DNA from: Prevotella sp.
GTDB lineage: Bacteria; Bacteroidota; Bacteroidia; Bacteroidales; Bacteroidaceae
NCBI GenBank assembly: GCA_017458005.1
Contig: JAFTGH010000029.1
Span: 1-64,000 of the forward strand
Direction of reading: 5' to 3'
Length of the DNA: 64,000 nt
A program made the translations under genes and the position numbers. Below are positions 7,724 through 12,233 of the stretch, in pieces. How positions within the stretch are numbered: the stretch's first letter is position 1; every line of letters starts with the position of its first letter. The notes under the pieces were generated by a model. The model had not been told where the DNA came from. It searched no databases and worked only from the letters and a program-made list of their open reading frames with translations.

Positions 7724-8914
7724 CTATTTGTTGGCTGCCTCAATAATCAATAGTTGGACATAGTTACGATATTCAGTAACTACAGTGTCCATCGAGAATT
7801 CGGGATGGGAACGGACAATCTGATCCAGACGTTGTTGCTCGCCAGCAAGAAATATGCGTGACTGTATCATCCACAAACTGTCATTTTGACGTGGATGTTC
7901 CACAGAACCCAATGTGGATTGAAATACGGGAAGCACTAATCTCTTGATATCTGAACGTAACTGCTCGATAGATTTCTGTTTAGCGTGACCAGAAGGAGTG
8001 TCTGAAACCTGGGGCTTTGTTGGTGCAAGCGGTGTCTCGATAACAGAAGTCTTTGTTATATGTGGAGTGTCTGCTTTTTCTGGCATCTTAACAGAAGGAA
8101 TGGTATCTGTTGCTACTGGCAGAATCTCTTCATGAGCGGTCTGCTGTTGCGGATAGAAGAGAAGGGCAATAGCAACAACAGGAATAGCCAATAGCAAGAG
8201 ATAGGGATACCATCGCCTATGAGATAGGTCGTGCTGCAAATCGTCTATAGACTGATATCGATCAGAGGGGTTACTTGCCGTACATCGTGCTATCACCTTA
8301 TTATATATATAAGCATGGGGGAGCATGGCAAGAATCTTGCCGATGGCATAGATGTCTGTGCGTTCGTCGACGACCTCTCCTCGTAATTGTTCTGGCGCCG
8401 CAAAGCCATTGGTATGTCCTTGGGTGTCCGAGAATGTATCTGTATAACAGCAACCAAAATCTACTAACTTAACATCATCATTAATGCGAGTCAACAGAAT
8501 ATTGTCTGGCTTTATATCCAGATGCAACACTTGATGGGCATGAAGATACCGCACCACATCCAACAACTGGGAGACAAACTTCTTTGTATTCTTGCGTGTG
8601 AAATATTGAGGACGATTTGTCAGGCAGTCCGTTAGTGTCTCACCATCCACATATTCTATCAGGATACCATCAGAGGACAAGGATATATAGCGGACAAGGT
8701 TAGGATGCTCTAAGCGATAGCCTGTCTCAAACTCTTTGTGGAATGCCTCTTGGAACAGGATGTCATTGGCATATTCCGCTTTCAATCGCTTCAGGAAATG
8801 CAGTTTGCCATACAACTTGACACGAAAGGTGTCGCAGGTGGCTCCATGACGCTCCAACAGTTCTGCTGCGTCATCATTGAACTGCTGGTTGTGAAACTCT
8901 GACGACTCCATCAT
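7724..8914 (-). CDS. Membrane-anchored Hanks-type Ser/Thr protein kinase
   Basis: A 396-residue protein phosphorylates proteins at the inner membrane. The kinase domain covers about 30-230: likely ATP-binding Lys42 (HFLKRLK), catalytic loop HLDIKPDN (131-138; Asp133, Lys135, Asn138), DFG at 152-154 and AAPEQL (172-177). The N-lobe lacks an obvious glycine-rich loop, so the domain is compact but has all catalytic residues. One membrane helix lies at about 236-255, followed by a 140-residue Pro/Thr-rich and then helical extracytoplasmic part. The gene overlaps the upstream partner gene by 4 bp (ATGA), so translation is coupled. Substrates may include that partner. The region 7530-7723 downstream is AT-rich and holds no gene I can see. 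Confidence 0.9.
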   Translation of the reverse strand: MMESSEFHNQQFNDDAAELLERHGATCDTFRVKLYGKLHFLKRLKAEYANDILFQEAFHKEFETGYRLEHPNLVRYISLSSDGILIEYVDGETLTDCLTNRPQYFTRKNTKKFVSQLLDVVRYLHAHQVLHLDIKPDNILLTRINDDVKLVDFGCCYTDTFSDTQGHTNGFAAPEQLRGEVVDERTDIYAIGKILAMLPHAYIYNKVIARCTASNPSDRYQSIDDLQHDLSHRRWYPYLLLLAIPVVAIALLFYPQQQTAHEEILPVATDTIPSVKMPEKADTPHITKTSVIETPLAPTKPQVSDTPSGHAKQKSIEQLRSDIKRLVLPVFQSTLGSVEHPRQNDSLWMIQSRIFLAGEQQRLDQIVRSHPEFSMDTVVTEYRNYVQLLIIEAANK

Positions 8915-9468
8915 ATGGAAAGAAGGGTTATTGAAGAGAGACCTTCCACAATACCTGCCGTATAGGAACCAAGTGCCTTACCATCACGCCATACTTGAGA
9001 TACCAACAGGGGGTGATGAAGGACGAATCCTTGTATCTCCACTTCATCACCTACGAATAGTTTGCTATTCTCGCTTTCTGTTACCTGATAGCGACAATTC
9101 TCCTTATACTCAAAAGTAACCTTCCTGTCTGGGAGATAGGTTATTTGAACACTGTCACCACTTTGTAGACTACTTGACTGAAGAACCTCAGCGGATTGAT
9201 TAAAGTCTGAGTTTCCATTATCCTCTACCCTCATCAATGCTTCCCAATGAGCATAACCTAAATAGCGGGCAATAGCATCAAGGGTAGTGACATGCGGAGT
9301 ACGTTCGTCTTGTGCGAAACCTAACAAGCGTTTGAGTGTAGTGGCACCAATATGAACCCCTATCTTGCTCTCAATATCATACGATAAATATTCACAATCG
9401 GAAGGTAGGCGCAAGTCGTTAGCCGACTTGTCCTTCAGCATCTGAATGATATGGAATGGCAAATGCAT
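8911..9468 (-). CDS. Kinase-partner protein: N-terminal helical DNA-binding-like domain plus beta domain
   Basis: This 185-residue protein has no signal peptide. Residues 1-75 are helical with a repressor-like layout (TTLKRLLGFAQDERTPHVTTLD then IARYLGYAHWEAL), as in Bacteroidota proteins that precede Ser/Thr kinases. Residues 100-185 are beta-rich with a small-barrel character (VQITYLPDRKVTFEYKEN). It is translationally coupled (4-bp overlap) to the kinase and has its own strong promoter. I infer it is a regulator or substrate of the kinase. I recognise no named family with certainty. Confidence 0.7.
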   Translation of the reverse strand: MHLPFHIIQMLKDKSANDLRLPSDCEYLSYDIESKIGVHIGATTLKRLLGFAQDERTPHVTTLDAIARYLGYAHWEALMRVEDNGNSDFNQSAEVLQSSSLQSGDSVQITYLPDRKVTFEYKENCRYQVTESENSKLFVGDEVEIQGFVLHHPLLVSQVWRDGKALGSYTAGIVEGLSSITLLSI

Positions 9469-9491
9469 AACTTAAACAATTATAGTTATGG

Positions 9492-9523
9492 CAAAGATAA
9501 ACATTTCTTCTGAAAGCCGCAAA
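9492..9523 (-). promoter_or_regulatory. Promoter of the kinase operon
   Basis: On the minus strand, TTTG (plus-strand 9520-9523) and TATCTTTG (9492-9499) are separated by exactly 20 nt, the best Bacteroidota spacing. The start codon of the partner gene is 23 nt downstream of the -7 box. Confidence 0.75.
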
Positions 9524-9616
9524 TGATTCCCAAAGAAATTAAGAGAAAGGGGGAAATATTTGGAAACATATAAAAATCTTCTTTTTACTGATAATCCGCA
9601 AAAAAGAATCAAAAAG

Positions 9617-9648
9617 TTTGCATTATTCGGGAAAAAGACTTATCTTTG
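9617..9648 (+). promoter_or_regulatory. Promoter of the abiF-associated RNA
   Basis: TTTG (9617-9620), 20 nt, then TATCTTTG (9641-9648). Transcription should start near 9652, about 100 nt before the AbiF start codon. Confidence 0.75.
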
Positions 9649-9651
9649 CAA

Positions 9652-9744
9652 CGAAAATCAGAAAGACAAAGGGCTGCTAGCCCGTCTTACGATAACAGTA
9701 CCCGCTGTGCATACCATCAGAACTGCCGGCGGGTCATTTTTTTT
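9652..9744 (+). ncRNA. Structured RNA upstream of abiF (candidate RNA antitoxin)
   Basis: The transcript between the promoter and the AbiF gene folds into two clear hairpins. The first pairs AAGAC (9663-9667) with GTCTT (9684-9688) and, after an AAA bulge, GGGCT (9671-9675) with AGCCC (9679-9683) around a GCT loop. The second pairs ACCCGC (9700-9705) with GCGGGT (9729-9734) and is followed by eight T residues. CAGT (9696-9699) could also pair with ACTG (9722-9725) in the loop of the second hairpin, a possible pseudoknot. A conserved abiF RNA motif preceding Abi_2 genes is known, and such RNAs have been described as antitoxins of AbiF. Here position, size and structure fit, but the family match was not computed. 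Confidence 0.7.
9700..9744 (+). terminator. Intrinsic terminator between the RNA and abiF
   Basis: The 6-bp GC-rich stem ACCCGC/GCGGGT is followed by CA and T8 (9737-9744), ending 5 nt before the AbiF ATG. It should release most transcripts as short RNA and let a minority read into the gene, the same arrangement as in type III toxin-antitoxin loci. Confidence 0.6.
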
Positions 9745-9749
9745 GAAAT

Positions 9750-10697
9750 ATGGCAAACAAGGCTTCAAGAACTATACAGGAGCAGATCGAACTGCTTGAG
9801 AATCGCGGGATGCTATTCCGTGACAAGGCTTTTGCAACGGAGTGCCTCAAGCGCATCAGTTACTTCCGATTGAAAGCCTATTGGTGGGACATGCAGAGCG
9901 ACCCCGTTAATCACGTCTTTACGGATGGAAGTTGTTTTGGGGATGTGATTGAGCGATATGAATTCGACAATGCCTTGCGAAAAATATTGTTCACAGCGAT
10001 TGACACCATAGAGATTGCTCTGCGTACAAAACTCATCTATCACATGTCACAGGCGCATGGTGGGCTTTGGTATATGGATGGTGCATTGTTCAACAATGCT
10101 AATCTGCACGCCAAACAACTACAGCATCTTCAGGTGGAATTTGCCGAAAGCGGCGAGGTGTTCGCCAAGGATTATAGGCGACAACACCCTAACCAGATTC
10201 AGAATGGATGGCAGAGTGACGAAGACCCTGATGCTTGGATTATCTTGGAAGTAGCGACATTGGGCGACTTGTCTAAACTCTACAAGAACATCGGGCACCA
10301 ACTGCCAGCGAAATCGAAGATTGCCAACGAGTTCGGATTGAGCATCCACAGCGACTTGGCCAGTTGGCTGGAGGCGATAGCATATTTGCGAAACATCGTT
10401 GCCCATCATTCCCGTCTGTGGAGTCGCAATATGGTTAAGCGCCCGTCAGAGCCACTAAATCCTCATAACATATGGCTGTCACATCAAATGTCAGACATGG
10501 AGGCAAAGCGCCCGTTCTATATAATCACCGCTATGCTTTATCTCTGTGATGCGGTTAATTCTCGCAACAGACTGAGGGCGGAGTTTTTCCAACTAATGAA
10601 GAAGTACAGCCATCTGCCTATCCAACGTATGGGTTTCTTTGCTGGCTGGGAACATGAGCCAATCTGGGCAATAGAGAGACCAGAAAACATGGTTTAG
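9750..10697 (+). CDS. abiF: AbiF/AbiD-like Abi_2 family HEPN protein (abortive infection)
   Basis: This 315-residue protein belongs to the Abi_2 family. Family features are visible: the opening block RISYFRLKAYWW (35-46), IEIALRTKLIYHMS (87-100) followed by GGLWY, and the C-terminal HEPN motif RNIVAHH at 214-220 (R-x4-H to His219, also His220), as in RNA-cutting HEPN domains. Arg92 and His98 in the first block form a second R-x5-H pair. It is cytoplasmic, with no membrane segment. The ATG at 9750 is 5 nt after the T tract of the RNA terminator, so there is little room for a ribosome site. Known relatives give phage resistance by growth arrest or RNA cleavage and are restrained by the upstream RNA. 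Family call is strong; activity here is inferred. Confidence 0.85.
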   Translation: MANKASRTIQEQIELLENRGMLFRDKAFATECLKRISYFRLKAYWWDMQSDPVNHVFTDGSCFGDVIERYEFDNALRKILFTAIDTIEIALRTKLIYHMSQAHGGLWYMDGALFNNANLHAKQLQHLQVEFAESGEVFAKDYRRQHPNQIQNGWQSDEDPDAWIILEVATLGDLSKLYKNIGHQLPAKSKIANEFGLSIHSDLASWLEAIAYLRNIVAHHSRLWSRNMVKRPSEPLNPHNIWLSHQMSDMEAKRPFYIITAMLYLCDAVNSRNRLRAEFFQLMKKYSHLPIQRMGFFAGWEHEPIWAIERPENMV

Positions 10698-10761
10698 AAA
10701 ACAATCGCCTCAATATTTGGTCGTCTGGGAAAAAGAAAAAAGGGAAATAAATGGATTTCAT

Positions 10762-10798
10762 AAAAAACTCTCGACCCCTTTGTTGAAGGGACCGAGAG
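10762..10798 (-). terminator. uxaC: Terminator of uronate isomerase
   Basis: On the minus strand, CTCTCGGTCCCTT and AAAGGGGTCGAGAG form a long stem (10768-10798) with a short loop, followed by T6 (10762-10767). It lies 29 bp after the stop codon and may also stop abiF transcripts. Confidence 0.8.
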
Positions 10799-10826
10799 AA
10801 TAAAAGGAATCTTATCTGAGTACAGA

Positions 10827-12233
10827 TTAATAGAACTTGAAATAACGGCGGGCGTTATTGTAGGAGATATCCTCCACCATCTTACCCAGCAACTCACGGT
10901 CGTCAGGCAGCAAGCCCTTCTCAACATCGTTACCCAGCATGTTGCAGAGGATGCGACGGAAATACTCATGACGTGGATAACTCAGGAACGAGCGGGAGTC
11001 AGTCAGCATACCTACGAAGCGGCTCAGCAAGCCCAGTACGGAGAGGGCGTTCATCTGACGCTCCATGCCGTCCTTCTGATCGTTGAACCACCAGCCAGAG
11101 CCAAACTGAATCTTGCCTGGCTCACCACCCTGGAAGTTGCCCAGCATAGTGGCAATCACCTCATTGGCACATGGGTTCAATGTATATAATATGGTACGCG
11201 TGAGTTTACCCTCCATGTTCAACTTATTGAGGAACTTAGACATCGCCTTGGCGGTATTGAACTCACCGATAGAGTCGAAACCAGTGTCAGGACCCAGTTG
11301 GTTGTACATCTTCGTATTGTTGTCACGGATAGCACCATAGTGGAACTGCTGTGTCCAGTCTGCATCAGCATCCATCTCAGCCATCACGGTCAGGAAGCAG
11401 TTCTTATACTGGCGTACCTCCATGTTAGAGAGTTGCTGTCCACGCATTGCCTTCTCGAAGATGGTCTCAATCTGTGAGTCGGTATACTCCTCGTCATAGA
11501 ACTCCTCAATACCGTGGTCGGAGAGTTTGCATCCCTGCTCCTGGAAGAAGTCATGACGCTTCTGAAGGGCATCTACCATGTCGGCGAACTTGGTGATGGT
11601 CACCCCACTCACCTGCTCCAACTGATGGACGTATGCGCCAAACTCGGGCTTCTCGATATTCATCGCCTTGTCAGGACGCCATGCGGGAATCATCAAAGGA
11701 TCGTCAGCAGCCTTGTGCTTGGCATACTCGATATGGTTGTGGAGGTCGTCAACGGGATCGTCGGTAGTACATACGCACTCCACATGATAATGCTTCATCA
11801 AGCCACGAGCGGAGAACTCAGGCTGCTTCAGTTTCTCGTTACACTCGTCGAAGATCTCACGAGCCGTCTTGGGCGAGAGCAGTTTCTCGATACCAAAGGC
11901 GGTCTTCAACTCCAGATGAGTCCAGTGATACAACGGGTTACGGAGTGTATAGGGAACAGTCTCTGCCCACTTCTCGAACTTCTCCCAGTCGGAGGTGTCC
12001 TTACCTGTGCAATACCTCTCATCAATACCATTGGTACGCATGGCACGCCACTTGTAATGGTCGCCACCCAGCCAGAGTTCTGTGATGCTCTTGAAGCGAT
12101 GGTCGTTAGCCACCATCTCTGGGATCAGGTGACAGTGGTAGTCGATGATAGGCATTTTAGCCGCATGATTGTGGAACAGGTCCTGTGCTACTTCGTTATC
12201 CAAAACGAAGTTCTTGTCGTTGAATTGTTTCAT
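10827..12233 (-). CDS. uxaC: Uronate (glucuronate/galacturonate) isomerase
   Basis: This 468-residue enzyme converts D-glucuronate to D-fructuronate and D-galacturonate to D-tagaturonate, the first cytoplasmic step of uronic acid use. Length and sequence fit UxaC throughout: the N-terminal metal-site HCH in IIDYHCHLIPEM, VNxx-free linker TGKDTSDWEKFEKWA, CVCTTDDPVDDL in the middle, LGPDTGFDSIG, and the C-terminal DSRSFLSYPRHEYFRR. It is monocistronic, with its own promoter and terminator, and divergent from the GH51 arabinofuranosidase, so both may respond to pectin or hemicellulose breakdown. No other uronate genes are in the window. Confidence 0.97.
   Translation of the reverse strand: MKQFNDKNFVLDNEVAQDLFHNHAAKMPIIDYHCHLIPEMVANDHRFKSITELWLGGDHYKWRAMRTNGIDERYCTGKDTSDWEKFEKWAETVPYTLRNPLYHWTHLELKTAFGIEKLLSPKTAREIFDECNEKLKQPEFSARGLMKHYHVECVCTTDDPVDDLHNHIEYAKHKAADDPLMIPAWRPDKAMNIEKPEFGAYVHQLEQVSGVTITKFADMVDALQKRHDFFQEQGCKLSDHGIEEFYDEEYTDSQIETIFEKAMRGQQLSNMEVRQYKNCFLTVMAEMDADADWTQQFHYGAIRDNNTKMYNQLGPDTGFDSIGEFNTAKAMSKFLNKLNMEGKLTRTILYTLNPCANEVIATMLGNFQGGEPGKIQFGSGWWFNDQKDGMERQMNALSVLGLLSRFVGMLTDSRSFLSYPRHEYFRRILCNMLGNDVEKGLLPDDRELLGKMVEDISYNNARRYFKFY

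What the first reader, a model, noticed from the sequence alone, without database searches (positions are those of the whole stretch)
9617..10697. AbiF HEPN protein with its own promoter, structured RNA and leaky terminator
The sequence shows a perfect promoter, a roughly 93-nt RNA of two GC-rich hairpins, a T8 terminator ending 5 nt before the start codon, and an Abi_2 protein with RNxxxHH and a second R-x5-H pair. Known: a conserved abiF RNA precedes Abi_2 genes, and AbiF-RNA pairs act as toxin-antitoxin defence and have been proposed as relatives of the ancestors of Cas13. Inference: this is a compact RNA-restrained, RNA-cleaving defence unit in which terminator leakiness sets the toxin to RNA ratio.
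Basis: partly seen in the sequence, partly recalled or inferred. Interest (0 to 1): 0.8.

Follow-up and report, generated by a model that had tools for sequence, protein, structure and literature searches.

The report
AbiF toxin with divergent RNA antitoxin
This is a small, mobile gene-plus-RNA unit in a Prevotella-like bacterium, probably an RNA-cutting defence toxin held in check by a short RNA made just upstream of it; the RNA looks like a sister form of the known abiF RNA that the standard RNA library does not recognise.

Summary
A Bacteroidota-type promoter (9617-9648) precedes a predicted two-hairpin RNA (about 9653-9744), a T8 tract and a 315-aa Abi_2/AbiD-F HEPN protein (9750-10697) whose R214/H219 align with R210/H215 of PDB 8vz6 (PbAbiF). 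The unit is of a known kind: AbiF plus RNA antitoxin. The RNA is the new part. Rfam's abiF model (RF03085) does not find it, even at E<=10, though it also misses many bulged relatives. Of 83 loci of this protein clade with upstream sequence (window included), 82 carry the same hairpin core (40 distinct sequences, compensatory changes). It lacks the 7-8-nt 3' bulge of the other AbiF RNAs examined; a review places the RNase-inhibiting nucleotides of PbAbiF's RNA in a bulge. Among rows of clear form, the two RNA forms are separated by one change on the protein tree. The module moves as a unit: window and nearest relative match only over 9600-10734. The 'leaky terminator' idea is weakened: 75 of 82 have a T-tract, but the two closest relatives lack one. 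Near-identical hairpins also sit 3' of other defence genes (AlbA_2, AbiE), unexplained. Toxicity, RNA binding and phage defence are inferred from homologues, not tested.

The parts
9617..9648 (+). Bacteroidota-type promoter: TTTG (9617-9620), 20-nt spacer, TATCTTTG (9641-9648)
   Evidence: (TAnnTTTG in 72 of 82 loci, 3.0 expected)
9653..9744 (+). predicted small RNA (start inferred from promoter, end from T-tract)
   Evidence: ends not measured
9663..9688 (+). 5' hairpin (hairpin 1), variable in sequence; absent in short-leader relatives
   Evidence: 51 distinct leaders, all z<0, mean -1.38, window -3.25; no consensus by RNAalifold; one search lists 10 short leaders
9695..9736 (+). conserved core: ACAG + hairpin 2 (stem 9700-9711 with 9724-9734, 12-nt loop, single bulged U, no 3' bulge)
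   Evidence: 59.5 bits with own model, which was built on it; 82 of 83 loci
9737..9744 (+). T8 tract after the hairpin: intrinsic-terminator-like
   Evidence: absent in L071 and L072
9750..10697 (+). AbiF-type (Abi_2 / AbiD-F) HEPN protein, 315 aa; R214, H219, H220
9600..10734 (+). extent of nucleotide homology to nearest relative L071 (promoter-RNA-gene module with unrelated flanks)

Best explanation
A self-contained, horizontally moving AbiF module. One promoter makes a short RNA of about 90 nt. Its conserved hairpin (1) binds the AbiF homodimer and holds its HEPN RNase inactive, as reported for PbAbiF and C. difficile AbiF. The same hairpin (2) with its T-tract ends most transcripts before the gene, so RNA exceeds mRNA. 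Lying 15 nt before the start codon, it (3) probably also lets bound AbiF block translation of its own read-through mRNA. When the balance is upset (phage infection, loss of the module), free AbiF cuts RNA and arrests growth. Shown here: anatomy, conservation, covariation, catalytic residues, module mobility, and a clade-specific RNA form without the 3' bulge. Inferred from homologues: toxicity, RNA-protein binding, termination. Inferred by me: translational self-repression, and that this clade's RNA blocks the active site in another way than through the bulge.
For: Pfam Abi_2 E 6e-50. 8vz6 E 2e-39 over residues 10-306, R214/H219 aligned with R210/H215; R210A+H215A is reported inactive (PMC12373285 Discussion). 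Core RNA in 82 of 83 loci; 96.1% of cells paired, 29 cells with both-sided change, 3 pairs, 0 of 500 shuffles as high on the covariation score; same helix predicted without guidance. T-run >=5 in 75 of 82 tails against 43 of 979 control windows. Start codon within 24 nt of the core in 79 of 81. Module boundaries 9600-10734 with other flanks in L071/L072. RNA form: one change between 65 bulge-less and 54 bulged rows on the protein tree.
Against: No transcript, toxicity or binding data for this locus. Rfam abiF not matched. The bulge said to inhibit PbAbiF's RNase is missing, so the known inhibition cannot simply be copied over. Seven of 82 tails have T-runs under 5, the two nearest relatives among them. 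One of 83 loci (L140) has no such RNA, and hairpins exist without AbiF. Counted against the bulged and the unclear rows together, the bulge-less form needs 4 changes on the tree.
Confidence: 0.75

Rival explanations
1. The RNA is only a cis-acting attenuator (riboswitch-like leader) that keeps abiF off; it does not act on the protein in trans.
For: Hairpin plus T-tract directly before the gene in most relatives (75 of 82).
Against: The 12-nt loop and the ACAG 5' flank are conserved beyond what a terminator needs (18 invariant columns of 42; the core was located by patterns that fix some letters, but these left out only L135 and L140). L071/L072 keep the core (L071 identical) but lack the T-tract. 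RCd22 and PbAbiFr bind AbiF (papers).
Confidence: 0.12
2. The RNA is a guide or activating cofactor, Cas13-like, directing AbiF to target RNA.
For: AbiD/F is the proposed source of Cas13 HEPN domains (PMC12165695, passages).
Against: No variable, unpaired spacer-like stretch is seen in the core: its unpaired parts are largely the conserved parts, and hairpin 1 varies but stays foldable.
Confidence: 0.04
3. The hairpin is primarily a DNA feature (mobile-element end or recombination hot spot) that also serves as terminator.
For: Near-identical cores 3' of AlbA_2, AbiEii and abiF genes; similarity stops at or within a few nt of the RNA end in the pairs L168/L169, L172/L176, L172/L174 and L177/L182. 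Junctions inside or just after the RNA in L011, L171, L180.
Against: Promoter, loop and stem are kept together with abiF in most loci (core in 82 of 83; TAnnTTTG in 72 of 82). L168/L175 and L167/L170 also share sequence beyond the RNA. No repeats at the module ends in the window. No empty site resolved.
Confidence: 0.07

Closest known systems
PbAbiF-AbiFr (Prevotellaceae bacterium, PDB 8vz6; Zilberzwige-Tal et al. 2025, not read, known through PMC12373285 and PMC12737573)
   Same: Homologous protein over almost its whole length (E 2e-39), same RN-x3-H residues, RNA hairpin just upstream of the gene.
   Different: About 31% identity. RNA of close PbAbiF relatives is the RF03085 form with a 7-8-nt 3' bulge (L154: 58.5 bits); the window's RNA has none and has an added 5' hairpin.
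AbiFCd-RCd22 of C. difficile prophage phi027 (PMC12373285)
   Same: AbiF toxin with own promoter, upstream RNA of about 100 nt, terminator before the gene.
   Different: RCd22 carries two abiF motifs plus a terminator hairpin. Here there is one motif, which is itself the terminator-like hairpin, and hairpin 1 shows no abiF loop. The phiC2 homologue is 25% identical to this protein.
abiF RNA, Rfam RF03085
   Same: Place before abi_2 genes, inner GC/GC stem with 11-12-nt loop, CCCGC-type outer stem. Loops of a bulged form (GCUUCCCGUAAGAACAGC) and of this form (GCAUCCCGUAAGAACUGC) differ by a compensatory closing pair (read).
   Different: No 3' bulge; not matched by the model (but the model also misses several bulged relatives).
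Type III toxin-antitoxin systems (ToxIN, CptIN, TenpIN)
   Same: RNA antitoxin transcribed upstream of the toxin with a terminator between (PMC12373285 Discussion).
   Different: Another toxin fold (HEPN; recalled), and no array of repeated RNA units in the window.

Membership tests
[quoted passage not shown]
   170.5 bits against cut-off 25.6; PADLOC AbiD 217 bits
[quoted passage not shown]
   R214, N215, H219 identical in 160 of 160 rows, some of them duplicates
[quoted passage not shown]
abiF RNA RF03085 | covariance-model match | tested here: not met
   none at gathering in the window, none to RF03085 at E<=10 in 9480-9900; 9 of 9 other loci of this clade none at E<=5, while L154 and L049 give 58 bits; the bulged loci L032 and L043 also gave none
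abiF RNA RF03085 | asymmetric internal loop with a 3' bulge of 6-8 nt | tested here: not met
   0 of 95 rows typed to this clade have a bulge of 6 or more: 2 (L140, L031) fit another hairpin, 85 have 0-1 nt, 8 have 2-4 nt; 23 of 27, 7 of 8 and 24 of 27 in the other groups have 7-8 (rows include duplicates, 45 distinct hairpins)
abiF RNA RF03085 | lies directly upstream of an abi_2 gene | tested here: met
RNA-antitoxin (type III-like) toxin-antitoxin system | RNA gene and toxin under one promoter with a terminator between | tested here: inconclusive
   sequence fits and T-runs of 5 or more follow the core in 75 of 82 loci, but transcription was not tested and the two nearest relatives lack the T-run
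RNA-antitoxin (type III-like) toxin-antitoxin system | repeated antitoxin units | tested here: not met
   only a 14-nt two-copy family outside the RNA in 9400-10900; one core match in the window at E<=1
RNA-antitoxin (type III-like) toxin-antitoxin system | RNA neutralises the toxin by binding | not testable with these tools
   needs experiment
Anti-phage defence system | protects against phage | not testable with these tools
   needs experiment

The most novel reading that the evidence does not exclude
In this Bacteroidota clade the AbiF antitoxin RNA has lost the inhibitory bulge and silences the HEPN site by another contact (the conserved ACAG strand or 12-nt loop). The same bulge-less hairpin also spreads on its own as a solitary antitoxin or element end attached to other defence genes, so that it disarms incoming AbiF modules or marks cargo ends.
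Probability: 0.25. Interest if true: 0.72.

Novelty: new variant of a known kind. Interest (0 to 1): 0.48.

Why it matters
AbiF with its RNA is the proposed root of Cas13. A sister clade with a simpler hairpin, and with members that lack even the 5' hairpin, gives a natural experiment on which part of the RNA restrains a HEPN RNase. It also gives an RNA model that finds systems Rfam misses, and an unexplained set of antitoxin-like hairpins at the 3' side of other defence genes.

Tried and rejected
Rfam at gathering and at permissive E-values: no abiF match (one search shows one match to another family, AniS, E 8.7, far below its cut-off). Rfam is a blunt test here: of 20 family loci scanned at gathering it found 3, none of the 11 loci of this clade but also only 3 of the 9 others. 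Sigma-70 promoter scan: nothing on the + strand, so the promoter call rests on the Bacteroidota consensus and its recurrence. The scan's terminator rule (loop 3-8) cannot see a 12-nt loop. First extraction of upstream regions and the print took loci on the minus strand in the wrong orientation; redone. Patterns for the core found 60 of 84 loci, then 61, and after widening 82; L135 has no upstream sequence and L140 no such RNA. L146 (very long leader) was left out of the long alignment (52 of 53 listed sequences). MAFFT did not align hairpin 1, and RNAalifold found no consensus for it, so its support rests on single-sequence folds of related sequences. An 8-12-aa protein insert (window about 144-157) was considered as replacing the RNA bulge; not supported, because 13 of 95 clade rows lack the insert and those of them that I looked at (L002, L097, L102) have no 3' bulge of the known kind either. 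Tree: quick method; I dropped L001-L009 as copies, kept every third of L105-L133, and set L140, L031 and L011 to unclear by hand. Viral contigs: 3 relatives by alignment query (L151 has the contig length and leader of the bacterial contig L092), none by the single protein. Plasmids: 40 records at E<=1e-30, best 50.6%. Phages: 44 records at E<=1e-8, all under 60%. Hairpin exact pattern in viral contigs: 0; a 57-base hairpin stretch in plasmids: no match. Empty-site test at the L167 flank: besides G020 only one of 44 genomes keeps the flank, too diverged to read the junction. Guide-RNA idea: no variable unpaired stretch seen in the core. Paper PMC8040213: passages only, the term Abi does not occur. 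Searches for this RNA form in print; no listed title describes it, but the Cell 2025 paper was not among the listed papers, and I did not look up or read it or the paper that defined RF03085.

Full report
What is there. The stretch 9617-10697 holds, in order, a Bacteroidota-type promoter, a predicted RNA of about 92 nt with two hairpins, a T8 tract and an open frame of 315 aa that starts 5 nt after the tract. The frame is Abi_2 (PF07751, E 6e-50), PADLOC AbiD, and matches one solved structure, 8vz6 chain A, 'Abi family protein', E 2e-39. That 8vz6 is PbAbiF with its RNA is stated in a figure legend of PMC12737573 (passage). The alignment puts R214 and H219 on its residues 210 and 215, the pair whose alanine mutant is reported inactive (PMC12373285 Discussion).

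The RNA is conserved. Its fold is better than 197 of 200 shuffles (z -2.64). The genome-contig scan kept the best 80 of 158 confirmed loci. With 3 viral-contig loci and the window that makes 84 loci, some of them copies of one another. One has no upstream sequence (L135) and one has no such RNA (L140), so the core was found in 82 of 83. The 82 cores are 40 distinct sequences. On their alignment the 11-pair helix has 96.1% of cells paired, 29 cells changed on both sides in 3 pairs, and a covariation score that no shuffle of 500 reached; slid versions pair 23.5 to 43.3%. RNAalifold, unguided, drew the same helix on 52 longer sequences from the same loci. These sequences are related, and the counts are of sequences, not events. 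Hairpin 1 differs strongly in sequence between relatives and has no alignable consensus, but each of the 51 distinct leaders tested folds better than the mean of its shuffles (all z below 0, mean -1.38, 11 below -2). Ten relatives with very short leaders have no room for it, so it is not the essential part.

It is not RF03085 by test. Rfam's abiF model gave nothing in the window at gathering or at E<=10 in the leader. At E<=5 it gave nothing in nine other loci of this clade, but 58 bits for L154 and L049, relatives of PbAbiF; two bulged loci of other groups (L032, L043) were missed as well. At gathering it found 3 of 20 family loci, all of bulged form: none of 11 of this clade, but only 3 of 9 others. 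So the Rfam model is narrow, and a miss alone does not set this form apart; the structure does. A mechanical hairpin fit gives a 3' bulge of 7-8 nt in 24 of 27 PbAbiF-type loci and in 23 of 27 and 7 of 8 of two further groups. Of 95 rows whose best protein match is the window protein (duplicates included, 45 distinct hairpins), 2 (L140, L031) fit some other hairpin, 85 have 0-1 nt, 8 have 2-4 nt and none has 6 or more. Homology to abiF RNA is still likely: the same place, the same inner stem and loop, a compensatory change of the loop-closing pair between the forms, and an in-between sequence in a Chryseobacterium plasmid (L186). Of three relatives outside the phylum (Rhizobium L187, cyanobacteria L188 and L189), two give sub-threshold RF03085 matches and none matches the new model at E<=1. 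On a quick tree of 134 proteins, the 65 rows with the bulge-less form and the 54 with the bulge are separated by one change. That count leaves out 11 rows labelled unclear (8 because the fit failed, 3 set by hand) and 4 in no group; against bulged and unclear rows together the bulge-less form needs 4 changes, and long branches are flagged by the program.

Why the bulge matters. A review states that C32 and U38 in a single-stranded bulge of PbAbiFr inhibit the RNase (PMC12737573, passage and legend). In the RNAs of PbAbiF's 88%-identical relatives a C and a U six bases apart lie in the 3' bulge if the numbering starts three bases before AGAACCC. That offset is my inference. If right, the window's RNA has no counterpart, and its restraint of AbiF must use other contacts. 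This is the sharpest difference from the known system, and it is testable.

Terminator. T-runs of five or more follow the core in 75 of 82 loci, against 43 of 979 control windows upstream, so the hairpin is usually terminator-like. Of the seven exceptions, two are the closest relatives, L071 (94% protein identity) and L072 (86%), with TTTCATG instead of T8, while L071's core is identical to the window's. RNA 9649-9736 matches L071 at 85 of 88 positions and the gene at 836 of 947 aligned positions; for L072 the figures are 74 of 89 and 740 of 945. So the core is kept where the tract is not. Leakiness may set the ratio in the window, but it is unlikely to be the general rule. The start codon lies within 24 nt of the core in 79 of 81 loci, which suggests that bound AbiF could also block its own translation (inference).

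Mobility. Nucleotide similarity to L071 runs from 9600 to 10734 only, and to L072 from 9645 to 10674 (first 20 kb of the window compared). Flanks are unrelated: a predicted potassium transporter beside L071 and a patatin-like gene beside L072 (both recognised from recall). No repeats mark the ends. The unit therefore moves as promoter-RNA-gene by an unknown route. An AbiF relative of any type at E<=0.001 occurs in 124 of 301 genomes of the family group. The bulge-less core occurs in 34 of 301 at E<=0.01, weak matches included, and in 3 of 395 across the phylum at E<=1e-4.

Orphan cores. Of 43 core matches, I fetched 20 stretches. Six lie 15-129 nt after an AlbA_2/HATPase_c_4 gene (L164, L168, L176 by Pfam; L169, L172, L174 by similarity to these). 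Two lie after AbiEii (L178 by Pfam; L165 by similarity of its 3' end). Two lie after abiF: L177, whose abiF also has its own 5' RNA, and L182, whose abiF lacks its first residues and has no 5' RNA. Two are one identical locus in two genomes (L167, L170). One follows an abiF fragment (L181). Four are RNAs with a truncated or missing abiF (L166, L171, L173, L180). Three have no recognised partner (L175, L179, L183; the last a weak match). The 3' cases are nearly identical in the core; of the 13 named first (six, two, two, two, one), only L165 and L178 have a TAnnTTTG within 110 nt. Similarity stops at or close to the RNA end in several pairs, but L168/L175 and L167/L170 share the sequence beyond it. 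They may be element ends, terminators or solitary antitoxins; I could not decide.

Literature. PMC12373285: abstract and the sections on identification, ncRNA, RNA mutants, structure and Discussion read. PMC12165695, PMC12737573, PMC8040213 and PMC12669027: passages only. The Cell 2025 paper and the paper defining RF03085: not read. I found no description of the bulge-less form in the listings, which cover open-licence papers only.

Verdict. An AbiF-RNA toxin-antitoxin or defence module, ordinary in kind, with a clade-specific antitoxin RNA that the public model misses. New variant of a known kind.

Noticed in passing
L164, L165, L167-L170, L172, L174, L176-L178, L181, L182 (RNA-sense, about 42 nt each): Near-identical bulge-less abiF-like hairpins sit 3' of AlbA_2/HATPase_c_4, AbiEii and abiF genes, most without an abiF 5' unit beside them; in several pairs similarity stops at the RNA end. 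Element end, terminator or solitary antitoxin is unresolved.
   Followed up: partly
L168, L169, L170, L177, L178 upstream of the cargo: A shared ORF (488 aa where complete, L170 and L177) ending in ...AIG(R/K)YEQAQKR(G/R)NS(L/M)KL precedes the defence cargo. The L170 copy has no Pfam or NCBIfam match; it looks like a mobilisation protein (recalled resemblance only).
   Followed up: partly
window 7724-9468, minus strand: Two overlapping genes next to the module: an unknown 185-aa protein and a 396-aa protein with a Ser/Thr kinase domain (PF00069 E 2.5e-28). The PADLOC PD-T4-6 matches cover only the kinase part.
   Followed up: no
L011 about 1453-1477; L171; L180: Junctions lie inside or just after the RNA: L011 has lost the 5' half of the hairpin to a neighbouring sequence and keeps abiF; L171 and L180 keep the RNA and have lost most or all of abiF.
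   Followed up: partly
L186 2844-3524 after the AbiF gene: A second annotated Abi family gene follows the bulge-less AbiF unit on a Chryseobacterium plasmid.
   Followed up: no
L071 2990-3015: Instead of the T8 tract, L071 has TTTCATGAAATATGGCTAA, which creates a four-codon out-of-frame upstream ORF over the abiF start (read by eye).
   Followed up: no
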